Assembly: GCF_900096755.1 (NCBI RefSeq)
Contig: NZ_LT615227.1
Coordinates: 972,489-1,036,488 of the forward strand
Reading direction: 5' to 3'
Length of the DNA stretch: 64,000 nt
DNA from: Polynucleobacter necessarius
GTDB lineage: Bacteria; Pseudomonadota; Gammaproteobacteria; Burkholderiales; Burkholderiaceae
Shown: positions 45,783 to 51,215 of the stretch, in pieces
Numbering within the stretch: position 1 is the first letter of the stretch
Layout of the letters: each line of letters starts with the position of its first letter
Notes under the pieces: model-generated
What the model was told of the DNA's origin: nothing
Databases searched by the model: none
The model's input: only the letters and a program-made list of their open reading frames with translations
Program-made: the position numbers and the translations under genes

Positions 45783-46459
45783 TTTCTACAAAGATTAACA
45801 GTCAGTCTTGATGGTCTAAATGATGATATCTTCAAAAAAATGAATGATGTCGATTTTCCAGTCAACGATGTGTTAGATGGAATTAAAGCCGCCCAAGAAG
45901 TTGGTTTTAAAAATATCAAAGTAAACATGGTCGTCAAAAAAGGCACTAATGATCACGAGATCGTTGCTATGGCCAAGCACTTTAAGTTAAGGCTAGCGGC
46001 GTCATTCTGCGCTTCATTGAATTCATGGATGTTGGCAGTTCTAACGGCTGGAATATGGAACAGGTACTTCCCTCTAAGGAAGTGATTGCCAGAATTCATG
46101 AGCACTTTCCGCTAGAACCCATTGAAGCCAATTACACAGGTGAAGTTGCTCAACGCTGGTGCTATGTGGATGGCTCCGGTGAGGTTGGCGTGATCTCTAG
46201 CGTGACTCAAACCTTCTGTCACGAATGCACACGCGCTCGTATTTCCACTGATGGCCAAATGTATCTCTGCTTATTTGCGAACGAAGGATTTGATTTCAAA
46301 ACCTTACTGCGCTCAGGAAAAAGTGATTTAGAAATTGCTATTGCTGTCATGAATACTTGGGCACAGCGTAATGATCACTACTCAGAGATCCGAGGATCGC
46401 AGAAAGCAAACCCATCGACCGGTAATCGCAAGGTCGAAATGTCTTACATTGGTGGCTAA
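45783..46459 (+). pseudogene. moaA: MoaA 3' part, inverted
   Basis: This plus-strand piece encodes the second half of Moa[39 protein letters not shown] and the C-terminal [4Fe-4S] region with [23 protein letters not shown], ending MSYIGG. TTAAG is tandemly duplicated at 45982-45991. Repair gives [13 protein letters not shown]. Re-inverting the segment joins it in frame to codon LKAA of the N-terminal half at 46534. Confidence 0.88.
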
Positions 46460-46533
46460 TGATTCTGGCTGAGCACATTACCGGTCTTATTTTGGCGGGC
46501 GGTCGCGCCCAAAGAATGGGCGGCATTGATAAA
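46459..46533 (+). pseudogene. mobA: MobA 5' part, inverted
   Basis: ATG at 46459 overlaps the moaA stop (TAATG) and encodes [20 protein letters not shown] then GGIDK, the GTP-binding LAGGxxxRMGGxDK motif of MobA. It breaks off at the inversion point. The rest of the gene is at 45247-45782 on the minus strand. Confidence 0.88.
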
Positions 46534-46992
46534 GGCTGCTTTTAGCGCAGCAGCCTTCTTGCGCAAGATGCTGCCATTCGTAGTTAAGGTGAGATCTAGT
46601 GGTTTGTTTTCTAAAGAGCGAACCTTGGCTAACATCTTAATCAGAATCTCTAGGTTTTTACGAAGTAGTGGCTCTCCACCAGTAAGGCGAATTTTTTCAA
46701 TGCCTAATGTGGCAAAAATTGAAGTCAGTCTAGTAATTTCTTCGAAGCTGAGCAATTCTTTGTGAGAGAGGTATGGGTAATTTTGATCAAATACTTCTTT
46801 AGGCATGCAGTACGTGCAGCGGAAATTGCAGCGGTCCGTTACGGAGATGCGTAGGTCACGTAAAACCCTGCCGCGAGTATCTGTTGTCCGGCCATGAGGC
46901 TTGACAAGCTCAGTGCCAATAGACGGCGGCACAAGTCCTTTGCCTTCATCAATGCGAATAGGGATTACTTTTGGAATTGCTTTTTCAACCAT
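46534..46992 (-). pseudogene. moaA: MoaA 5' part (outside the inversion)
   Basis: MoaA is the radical-SAM enzyme that starts molybdopterin synthesis from GTP. The piece starts best at ATG 46992 ([15 protein letters not shown]). It holds the SAM/[4Fe-4S] motif [10 protein letters not shown], the [13 protein letters not shown] motif and [20 protein letters not shown], and is then cut by the inversion. Read onward, 21 foreign residues follow before a stop. Half an enzyme remains, without the second cluster. Confidence 0.88.
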
Positions 46993-47345
46993 GTTCTCAA
47001 TTATGGCTGTGAAACGGGGTTTCTGCCAAACCGCCAAATATCCTTGTGGGATAAATGACGGTCTGGAGAAAAAGCTTTAGATGGCTTAAACCGTTTTTTC
47101 TTGGCCGCCGGTTTCAACTAAAACCATAGGGCCATCAGGAAGGCTAGCTGCAGGCTTGGGCGCTCTGCCTAAGTTGTGAGCAGCAGGCTCTGCCTGGATT
47201 TGACTTTGTGCTTCTGCATGCTTTGATGAATCAGTAGCTACCCAGATCATTCCGGCAGACTGGACAACGCTATGCAAAGGCGTTTCTTCAAGTGCCTGGA
47301 AGGCAACTTTAGGAAGTTCGGGTGCAGGTTTAGCAATGACTTCTA

Positions 47346-47819
47346 CCGGAGCTACAACTGCAGCAACTGGTGCTGGAGTTGATGCTGCTGGAGAGGTTGA
47401 TGCAGCAGGAGCAGATCCTTGTGCAGGGCGATTAGATTGACGCGGCGCACGCGGCGCACGCGGCGCACGCGGCGCACGCTCTTGTCGCTCTTGTTTTTCT
47501 GCAGCAGGTTTTGCATTGCCAAAACTGTTGGCGATGTTCTGAATCGGCATCGAGGCAGATGCGCCAGCCATACCAATAGGAGCCGGAGCTACAACTGCAG
47601 CAACTGGTGCTGGAGTTGATGCTGCTGGAGAGGTTGATGCAGCAGGAGCAGATCCTTGTGCAGGGCGATTAGATTGACGCGGCGCACGCGGCGCACGCGG
47701 CGCACGCGGCGCACGCTCTTGTCGCTCTTGTTTTTCTGCAGCAGGTTTTGCATTGCCAAAACTGTTGGCGATGTTCTGAATCGGCATCGAGGCAGATGCG
47801 CCAGCCATACCAATAGGAG
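47346..47819 (-). repeat. 237-bp tandem duplication in rne, in frame
   Basis: Two adjacent copies (47346-47582, 47583-47819) appear identical. Each encodes 79 residues of the disordered C-terminal half, including MAGASASMPIQNIANSFG and four RAP repeats. The junction shares an AG. The open frame is preserved. Confidence 0.93.
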
Positions 47820-48082
47820 GGCCTGAAAATGGGCTAGCTGATACAGCTGTTGAAGTGTTGACTGATGTAGGCGCTACATTGTTATTTGCTTCGCCATTCT
47901 CAGTGCGCTCACCACGTTGTCCACGACCACGACGCTCTTCGCCTTCGGCGCCAGGAGTTGCTTCGCTGCCTGGAGCTGCTTCAGTAGCTGGAGTTACAGC
48001 GGCTGGGTTAGCTTGGTTGCGAGTGCCGTTACGGTTGTTGTTACCGCCTTCAGTAGCTGCACCTTTGGCTGCATTTGCTGCC

Positions 48083-48138
48083 GGACGCTCAGCGCGATCA
48101 CCATTGCGATCACCATTGCGATCACCATTGCGATCACC
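48083..48138 (-). repeat. 12-bp tandem repeats encoding GDRN
   Basis: GCGATCACCATT is repeated about four times, encoding (GDRN)n in the Arg-rich RNA-binding part of RNase E. This is ordinary low-complexity expansion. Confidence 0.85.
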
Positions 48139-48832
48139 GCGACGATTGCGGCCACGGTTACGGTCACCGCCATTACGGCCTTGATTGCGGCCACGATTAT
48201 TGCTTGGCGCTGGTTTCTCTTCTGCCGCTGGAGATGAGGAGAAGAGCTTCTTAATGAAGCCAAAGAAACCACCAGAGCTTTCGGTCGCCGCTTTTTCAGC
48301 GCGCACAGGGCGTGGCTGACTAATTGGCGCAGGCTGAGTTGGCGTAATACCTTTTACAGTAGCTTCAGGACGTACTTTAACGTCAGCATCCTTTTTGCTC
48401 ACTGTTGTGTCTGTCTCGAGTTCACGAGCTGCTTCTTCAGCCATTACATAGCTGGCCTTTTGGTCATCCAGACGTGGGTCATCGTGACGTAAACGCTCTA
48501 ACTTGTAATGTGGTGTTTCTAGGTGCTTGTTTGGAACCATCAAGACGTTCACTTTGAAGCGAGTCTCGATCTTGATAACTTCAGCACGTTTTTCATTCAA
48601 GAGGAACGCAGCCACTTCGACTGGAACCTGAGTATGAATAGCTGCTGTGTTCTCTTTCATTGCCTCTTCTTGGATGATGCGCAGAACTTGCAATGCAGAG
48701 GATTCGGTATCACGGATGTGGCCAGTGCCGTTACAACGTGGGCAGGTTACATGGCTGCCTTCAGACAAGGCTGGGCGCAAACGTTGGCGGGACATTTCCA
48801 TCAAACCAAATTTGGAGATCTTGCCCATCTGA

Positions 48833-49190
48833 ACGCGTGCACGGTCATGGCGCAGCGCATCGCGCAAACGATTCTCAACATCTTTCTGTGCTTTGCTCGA
48901 TTCCATATCAATGAAGTCGATCACGATCAAGCCGCCCAGGTCACGTAAACGTGCTTGACGAGCGATTTCATCGGCAGCCTCTAAGTTCGTGCGAGTTGCA
49001 GTCTCTTCAATACGCGTGCACGGTCATGGCGCAGCGCATCGCGCAAACGATTCTCAACATCTTTCTGTGCTTTGCTCGATTCCATATCAATGAAGTCGAT
49101 CACGATCAAGCCGCCCAGGTCACGTAAACGTGCTTGACGAGCGATTTCATCGGCAGCCTCTAAGTTCGTGCGAGTTGCAGTCTCTTCAAT
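48833..49190 (-). repeat. 179-bp tandem duplication in rne
   Basis: Copies 48833-49011 and 49012-49190 cover [20 protein letters not shown] through [11 protein letters not shown]. The junction shares one A. 179 is not divisible by three, so the frame is lost. Confidence 0.93.
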
Positions 49191-49359
49191 ATCGGAGCCA
49201 CGAGTTGCGCGTGCAGAGTTAACGTCCACAGAAACCAAAGCTTCAGTGTGGTCGATCACGATTGCGCCGCCAGATGGCAATGGCACAGTGCGTGAGTACG
49301 CAGTTTCAATTTGATGCTCAATTTGGAAGCGTGAGAACAAAGGCACATCATCTTGATAG

Positions 49360-49811
49360 CGCTTTACTCTTGGCAAATTGTCAGGCATCACCACAGACAT
49401 AAATGCTGCAGCTTGTTCGTAGATGTCATCGGTATCGATGAGGATCTCGCCAATATCTGGCTGGAAGTAATCGCGAATAGCGCGAATCACTAAGCTAGAT
49501 TCGAGGTAGATCAATAGCGGTGCTGAGTTACCTTTGGCAGCTTCATCAATCGCTTTCCATAACTGCATGAGGTAACTTAAGTCCCCGCTTTACTCTTGGC
49601 AAATTGTCAGGCATCACCACAGACATAAATGCTGCAGCTTGTTCGTAGATGTCATCGGTATCGATGAGGATCTCGCCAATATCTGGCTGGAAGTAATCGC
49701 GAATAGCGCGAATCACTAAGCTAGATTCGAGGTAGATCAATAGCGGTGCTGAGTTACCTTTGGCAGCTTCATCAATCGCTTTCCATAACTGCATGAGGTA
49801 ACTTAAGTCCC
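49360..49811 (-). repeat. 226-bp tandem duplication in rne
   Basis: Copies 49360-49585 and 49586-49811 cover [20 protein letters not shown] through [10 protein letters not shown]. The junction shares one C. 226 is not divisible by three. Confidence 0.93.
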
Positions 49812-49891
49812 ACTGCAATTCTGTCGCGTCGCGACCAATGCCAGCGGTACGAGCAATGATGCTCATGCCGTCTGCTACTTCTAATTGAGTC

Positions 49892-50555
49892 ATGGCTTCA
49901 CGCAACTCTTGACGGTCTTCGCCTTCAATGCGACGGGATACACCGCCTCCGCGTGGGTTATTTGGCATCAATACCAAATAACGGCCTGCCAGGGAGATAA
50001 AGGAGGTGAGGGCGGCGCCTTTTTGGCCACGCTCTTCTTTTTCTACCTGAACAATGATTTCTTGACCTTCGCGCAAGGCATCCTTAATGGATGCATTGCG
50101 GACGTCGATACCCTCTTTAAAGTAACTACGGGCAACTTCCTTGAATGGTAAAAAGCCGTGGCGTTCTTCACCGTAATTGACAAAGCAAGCCTCCAGGGAG
50201 GGTTCAATGCGGGTAATAACACCATGGCTTCACGCAACTCTTGACGGTCTTCGCCTTCAATGCGACGGGATACACCGCCTCCGCGTGGGTTATTTGGCAT
50301 CAATACCAAATAACGGCCTGCCAGGGAGATAAAGGAGGTGAGGGCGGCGCCTTTTTGGCCACGCTCTTCTTTTTCTACCTGAACAATGATTTCTTGACCT
50401 TCGCGCAAGGCATCCTTAATGGATGCATTGCGGACGTCGATACCCTCTTTAAAGTAACTACGGGCAACTTCCTTGAATGGTAAAAAGCCGTGGCGTTCTT
50501 CACCGTAATTGACAAAGCAAGCCTCCAGGGAGGGTTCAATGCGGGTAATAACACC
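49892..50555 (-). repeat. 332-bp tandem duplication in rne
   Basis: Copies 49892-50223 and 50224-50555 cover [20 protein letters not shown] through [11 protein letters not shown]. The junction shares a single C. 332 is not divisible by three, so the first frame loss in translation happens here. Confidence 0.93.
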
Positions 50556-50735
50556 TTTGTAGATATTGCCTTTGCGTTGTTCACGACCGGCAGCTTCGAT
50601 ATCGATATCAATGAGTTTTTGACCATCAACGATGGCAACTCGCAACTCTTCTTGTTGAGTTGCATTAAACAACATGCGTTTCATAACACTCTCCTATGGG
50701 GGAGGGCGTCGTTGCGCGCTAGCGTTAGGGGACAA

Positions 50736-51215
50736 GTTAAGTACCGCTAAGGACTGAGCCTTGTGCGGTTTAAGAGTGTGGTTCATGCAAATCTCATTTT
50801 TTGCTTAGTTCACCAAGTTAACGCTTGGTTAATTCGGTGCCACACTTGACGATCGCCGCAGAGACCTCCTTCCTTTAGGTCATCAATGCAGGCGCGCGCC
50901 TGAAAACTGTCTTCTAATCGCGGGTCGCGGCATACGGCACACCAACCCTGCGCCTCATTACAACGGGGGAGGGGCGTTAAGTACCGCTAAGGACTGAGCC
51001 TTGTGCGGTTTAAGAGTGTGGTTCATGCAAATCTCATTTTTTGCTTAGTTCACCAAGTTAACGCTTGGTTAATTCGGTGCCACACTTGACGATCGCCGCA
51101 GAGACCTCCTTCCTTTAGGTCATCAATGCAGGCGCGCGCCTGAAAACTGTCTTCTAATCGCGGGTCGCGGCATACGGCACACCAACCCTGCGCCTCATTA
51201 CAACGGGGGAGGGGC
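50736..51215. repeat. 240-bp tandem duplication of the rne leader/promoter region
   Basis: Copies 50736-50975 and 50976-51215 appear identical and lie wholly between rne and the divergent rluC. No junction homology is visible. If real, the rne promoter and long 5' leader are present twice. In E. coli this leader mediates autoregulation of rne. Whether that holds here is unknown. Confidence 0.92.

What the first reader, a model, noticed from the sequence alone, without database searches (positions are those of the whole stretch)
47346..51215. Five large perfect tandem duplications packed into the rne locus
Within 3.9 kb there are tandem duplications of 237, 179, 226, 332 and 240 bp, each apparently identical between copies and with 0-2 bp of shared sequence at the junction. 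I saw no comparable duplication elsewhere in the 64 kb. Three break the rne frame, and deleting one copy of each restores exactly 954 codons. Clustering in one gene, of an enzyme normally important for growth, demands an explanation: an assembly artefact confined to this contig region, a local hotspot (long staggered breaks repaired by fill-in), or selection against RNase E activity.
Basis: partly seen in the sequence, partly recalled or inferred. Interest (0 to 1): 0.85.

Follow-up and report, generated by a model that had tools for sequence, protein, structure and literature searches.

The report
Assembly errors duplicated within RNase E gene
Five stretches in and just before one bacterial gene appear twice in a row in the database sequence, most likely because overlapping pieces were pasted end to end during genome assembly rather than because the living cell carries the copies.

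Summary
The five perfect tandem duplications (237, 179, 226, 332, 240 bp; 0-1 bp homology) are really in the sequence, four in rne and one in its leader. They are very probably assembly artefacts. The window comes from a 1.706-Mb single-contig Polynucleobacter genome, of which I read 74%. Comparable duplications elsewhere in that part lie only at two joins marked by a single N between exact 248-bp copies (rng, and 460 kb), and in the record's last 1.26 kb (94 and 372 bp). There the record stops inside a gene, and the nearest relative has 25.4 kb more, not found here. That relative is single-copy at all nine sites. A near-identical, intact, single-copy RNase E exists on another contig. The frame-breaking junction tail tested occurs only in this genome's record among 120 listed hits. 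Pieces between joins (574-1429 bases) look like reads or mini-contigs laid end to end without merging overlaps. A neighbouring 752-bp moaA/mobA inversion and many pseudogenes look genuine. Raw reads were not available; a real local event keeps about 6%.

The parts
47086..50684 (-). rne (RNase E), the only full-length match in the genome, frame broken by three of the duplications
   Evidence: ORFs; tblastn pieces in three frames; one full match in G000
47346..47819 (.). tandem duplication, 2 x 237 bp, in frame, 0 bp homology
   Evidence: single copy in G036
48833..49190 (.). tandem duplication, 2 x 179 bp, frame-breaking, 1 bp homology
   Evidence: single copy in G036
49360..49811 (.). tandem duplication, 2 x 226 bp, frame-breaking, 0 bp homology
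   Evidence: single copy in G036
49891..50554 (.). tandem duplication, 2 x 332 bp, frame-breaking, 1 bp homology
   Evidence: single copy in G036; junction tail only in this genome's record among 120 listed hits
50736..51215 (.). tandem duplication, 2 x 240 bp, upstream of rne (leader), 0 bp homology
   Evidence: single copy in G036

Best explanation
Assembly artefact. Pieces of sequence of about 0.57-1.4 kb (finishing reads or mini-contigs) whose ends overlapped by 179-333 bases were laid end to end through rne without merging the overlaps, so each overlap stands twice as a perfect tandem duplication with arbitrary ends. The same fault left 248-bp duplications around a single N at two other joins, and 94- and 372-bp duplications at the unfinished end of the record. 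Shown: the duplications and their exactness, the N at two joins, the position at the record end, single copies in the nearest relative, an intact near-identical RNase E elsewhere. Inferred: that unmerged overlaps are the cause, and that the pieces were reads or small contigs.
For: A 248-bp duplication at 124700/124949 (rng) has a single N exactly at the junction and another N at the same place inside both copies. An unrelated site at 460208/460457 again shows exactly 248 bp with one N at the junction. Two more (94 and 372 bp) stand in the last 1.26 kb of the record, which ends inside a gene; the matching places of the record's end and start lie 25.4 kb apart in G036, and that stretch was not found in G000. 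G036 is single-copy at the five rne sites, the rng site, the 460-kb site and both end sites. P0001, an 863-aa intact RNase E on a 28,457-base contig, is identical to the window's pieces through residue 372 apart from the junction tail. The out-of-frame tail of the 332-bp junction is in 1 of 120 listed hits, this genome's own record. The rne frame shows no other damage. Pieces between joins are 574, 637, 753 and 1429 bases in rne and 590 and 577 at the record end.
Against: The five rne junctions and the two end junctions carry no N. The N joins have a fixed length of 248 and the others do not, so more than one assembly step may be at fault. Both RNase E/G family genes are hit, which is odd, although rng was met only because it resembles rne. 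Other single Ns in the genome (299018, 963515, 963870, 972488, 1145821) have no long duplication beside them. The shared N inside both rng copies could also arise from ambiguous read mapping to a real duplication. No raw reads were seen.
Confidence: 0.9

Rival explanations
1. One real, very recent local catastrophe: clustered staggered breaks with overhangs of 180-330 nt across 3.9 kb, filled in and end-joined in order, giving five blunt tandem duplications at once.
For: Blunt or 1-bp junctions, identical copies and tight clustering fit one event. Nothing comparable in the 400 kb.
Against: Ku (PF02735) is absent from G000 and from 18 of 18 other same-genus genomes searched; other end joining was not tested. 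The event would destroy the only rne. It would not explain the N joins or the record end.
Confidence: 0.06
2. Ordinary real decay: rne lost its role in this decaying, probably host-bound genome, and the duplications arose one after another.
For: 22 of 59 G036 ORFs matched in the window are interrupted by a crude test, so gene loss is under way; RNase G is present with an open frame apart from one N.
Against: The rest of rne shows no frameshift or stop, and its catalytic half is identical to P0001. Other broken genes here are broken by frameshifts, stops, deletions and one inversion, not by long duplications.
Confidence: 0.03
3. Selection against RNase E activity favoured repeated disruption of rne.
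For: Three of the five break the frame.
Against: After the first frameshift there is nothing further to select for; one duplication is in frame and one outside the gene. RNase E is called essential, with only C-terminal truncation viable, in the passages read of PMC8386462.
Confidence: 0.01

Closest known systems
'Homotype' false duplications in genome assemblies (PMC8081667; passages read)
   Same: Extra identical copies at contig boundaries; described there as often lying at contig boundaries and about as long as the reads.
   Different: Described for vertebrate long-read assemblies; here a bacterial record with copies of 94-372 bp. Read depth and k-mer copy number, used there to tell them, could not be tested.
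Tandem duplication by fill-in of staggered breaks and end joining (recalled, no call)
   Same: Blunt or near-blunt tandem copies of variable length.
   Different: Needs end joining, which the missing Ku argues against; would not place copies at N-marked joins or at the end of a record.
Tandem duplication between short repeats by slippage or recombination (recalled, no call)
   Same: Head-to-tail copies.
   Different: Needs flanking homology; here 0-1 bp.

Membership tests
False duplication from unmerged overlaps (homotype) | copies identical in sequence | tested here: met
   100% in all five; also at the rng, 460-kb and end sites
False duplication from unmerged overlaps (homotype) | located at contig boundaries or joins | tested here: inconclusive
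   met at two N joins and at the record end; no mark of a join survives inside rne
False duplication from unmerged overlaps (homotype) | duplicated or piece length near read length | tested here: inconclusive
   pieces of 574-753 and 1429 bases are suggestive; read lengths of this assembly are unknown
False duplication from unmerged overlaps (homotype) | reduced read depth and no spanning reads | not testable with these tools
   no raw reads
Staggered-break fill-in duplication | blunt or near-blunt junctions | tested here: met
   0-1 bp
Staggered-break fill-in duplication | end-joining machinery (Ku) | tested here: not met
   no PF02735 match in G000; 0 of 18 other same-genus genomes; 3 of all 31 searched have one, all in other families. 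Other end joining not tested
Slippage or recombination between repeats | homology at the ends of the unit | tested here: not met
   0-1 bp

The most novel reading that the evidence does not exclude
A real one-off shattering of a 3.9-kb stretch in a bacterium without Ku, healed by fill-in into five blunt tandem duplications that switch off RNase E, leaving its paralogue RNase G (open frame apart from one N) to do the work.
Probability: 0.05. Interest if true: 0.75.

Novelty: not a real feature. Interest (0 to 1): 0.1.

Why it matters
It prevents a false claim that a bacterium has lost RNase E, and shows that a single-contig genome scored 99.98% complete can still carry joins that break genes. 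Perfect long tandem duplications with blunt ends, clustered or beside a single N, are a usable warning sign in genome scans. If the copies were real, the case would be a rare local rearrangement in a gene normally needed for growth.

Tried and rejected
Considered and rejected: selection against RNase E (see rivals). Also considered: that the neighbouring moaA/mobA inversion belongs to the same event or artefact. Its ends share only a few bases and show no long overlap, the inverted genes carry further frame changes, and its junction protein is held, letter for letter from its ATG on, from a 1092-base contig, so it looks like genuine decay. The source of that contig is not shown, so the same sample is not excluded.

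Looked for a general tendency to tandem duplication: the other exact direct repeats of 50 bp or more within 5 kb in the stretches read are short-unit arrays (units of 6, 9, 25 and 30 bp) and one 93-bp unit in a repetitive gene. TRF and self-BLAST of the first 464 kb (window and 20 stretches) found no older, diverged long duplication. Repeats that cross the edge of a stretch were not tested.

Led nowhere: a paper on symbiont genomes of this group is not held; searches for an account of this assembly, for false duplications in bacteria and for rne essentiality gave listings only, apart from passages of PMC8386462 and PMC8081667. The contigs of P0001 and P0121 could not be read.

Full report
OBSERVATION. 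The five duplications exist as described. Both copies of each are identical; junction homology is 0, 1, 0, 1 and 0 bp. The rest of the 64 kb has no comparable repeat. The gene is rne, minus strand, ATG at 50684 and stop ending at 47086; four duplications lie in it and the fifth in its leader. Three lengths are not multiples of three. The span less these three is 954 codons including the stop, and 875 if the in-frame 237 is also subtracted (arithmetic). The listed relatives that are not short pieces have 856-888 aa.

GENOME. The window is G000:C1:972489-1036488 of a 1,705,691-base single contig scored 99.98% complete. The nearest of 60 same-genus genomes searched is G036 (95-96% in the listed rne pieces). 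Its contig length, 1,921,418, is the one listed for the RNase E of Polynucleobacter sp. AP-Kolm-20A-A1, so I take it to be that strain. Of 59 ORFs of the G036 region with a match in the window, 22 are interrupted by stops or frame changes by a crude test; the 22 include rne and one spurious ORF in its leader; right of 51300 it is 1 of 13. So this looks like a decaying genome. That it is a ciliate endosymbiont of the P. necessarius kind is inference from the pseudogenes and the genus (the link of that species with ciliates is in the abstract start listed).

RELATIVES. G036 matches across each of the five duplications as a single copy. In 99 of 99 loci of relatives tested there is no exact tandem repeat of 60 bp or more. 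Not all of these hold the whole gene: the 19 same-genus loci hold its start and leader but not the last 600 bases or so (so not the 237-bp place), and 70 of the 80 named loci hold the whole gene and 300 bases of leader by a rough projection; one of the 80 gave no match in that check. A protein search with the 614-aa C-terminal ORF found P0001, an intact 863-aa RNase E on a 28,457-base contig whose source is not shown. The window's pieces match it at 100% over residues 44-256 and 182-372, and at 98.7% over 1-157, where the two differences lie past residue 154 in the junction tail. The piece for residues 313-841 matches at 88%, with gaps: it holds the 79-aa repeat, other microrepeat copy numbers and at least three substitutions seen by eye. 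So a very close relative has a normal gene. A search with the 213-aa ORF that crosses the 332-bp junction found its out-of-frame tail in 1 of 120 listed hits, this genome's own record (P0241, contig 1705691). By contrast the junction protein of the moaA/mobA inversion, 0.8 kb from the cluster, is held on a 1092-base contig (P0121).

THE KEY COMPARISON. The paralogue rng at about 124 kb came up by similarity. It has a 248-bp duplication with a single N exactly between the copies and another N at the same place inside both; its frame is open for 486 aa apart from that N, and G036 is single-copy there. I then read 60 stretches of the genome; with the window they make 1,261,488 of 1,705,691 bases, 74%. 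Two stretches were chosen for a reason: the one holding rng and the end of the record. In the other 58 one more long duplication appeared, at 460208/460457: again exactly 248 bp, again one N exactly at the junction, single-copy in G036. The end of the record held two more, 94 bp at 1704431/1704525 and 372 bp at 1704743/1705115, single-copy in G036. Other exact direct repeats of 50 bp or more within 5 kb are short-unit arrays with units of 6, 9, 25, 30 and 93 bp. Single Ns at 299018, 963515, 963870, 972488 and 1145821 have no such duplication. Repeats that cross the edge of a stretch were not tested.

THE RECORD END. The record stops and starts inside genes by the look of its sequence. In G036 the matching places are 25.4 kb apart (between 1231215 and 1256595). 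Two searches with 12,000 and 12,500 bases of that stretch found only short matches of 45-71 bases in G000. So the ends are an unclosed gap or the edges of a deletion. Duplications at just this place are what one expects if reads or small contigs were added outward from a contig end without merging overlaps.

MECHANISM. Reading each junction as a boundary gives pieces of 1429, 574, 637 and 753 bases in rne and 590 and 577 at the record end, overlapping by 179-333 and by 94 and 372 bases. Lengths near 570-750 suggest single reads or mini-contigs; this is inference. False duplications at contig boundaries, about as long as the reads, are described for other assemblies (PMC8081667, passages). A biological origin is a poor alternative: Ku is missing here and in 18 of 18 other same-genus genomes searched, the only rne would be destroyed while the rest of its sequence shows no decay, and RNase E is called essential, with C-terminal truncation viable, in passages of PMC8386462 on Bordetella pertussis (that it belongs to the same order is recalled).

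WHAT SPEAKS AGAINST. The rne and record-end junctions have no N. The N joins have a fixed length and the others do not, so more than one assembly step may be at fault. That both RNase E/G family genes are hit is odd, though rng was met only because it resembles rne. The shared N in both rng copies could also come from ambiguous mapping to a real duplication. Raw reads decide the matter and were not available.

VERDICT. Observation confirmed; an assembly artefact with about 90% confidence.

Noticed in passing
window 45786-46537: A 752-bp inversion relative to G036 turns the middle and C-terminal part of moaA and the start of mobA around; its ends share only a few bases, the genes carry further frame changes, and the junction protein is held on a separate 1092-base contig.
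   Followed up: partly
window 8629-54505: Many interrupted genes relative to G036: 22 of 59 matched ORFs by a crude test, 1 of 13 right of 51300; a decaying genome.
   Followed up: partly
L129 (G000:C1:124700-125196), rng: 248-bp tandem duplication with a single N at the junction and a shared N inside both copies; G036 single-copy.
   Followed up: yes
L175 (G000:C1:460208-460704): Second 248-bp tandem duplication with a single N at the junction; G036 single-copy.
   Followed up: yes
L148 (G000:C1:1704431-1705691): 94- and 372-bp tandem duplications in the last 1.26 kb of the record; 25.4 kb of G036 sequence lies between the places matching the record's end and start.
   Followed up: partly
window 47440-47479 and 48094-48138: Pure 9-bp and 12-bp microrepeats in the C-terminal part of rne; their copy numbers differ from the near-identical P0001.
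   Followed up: no
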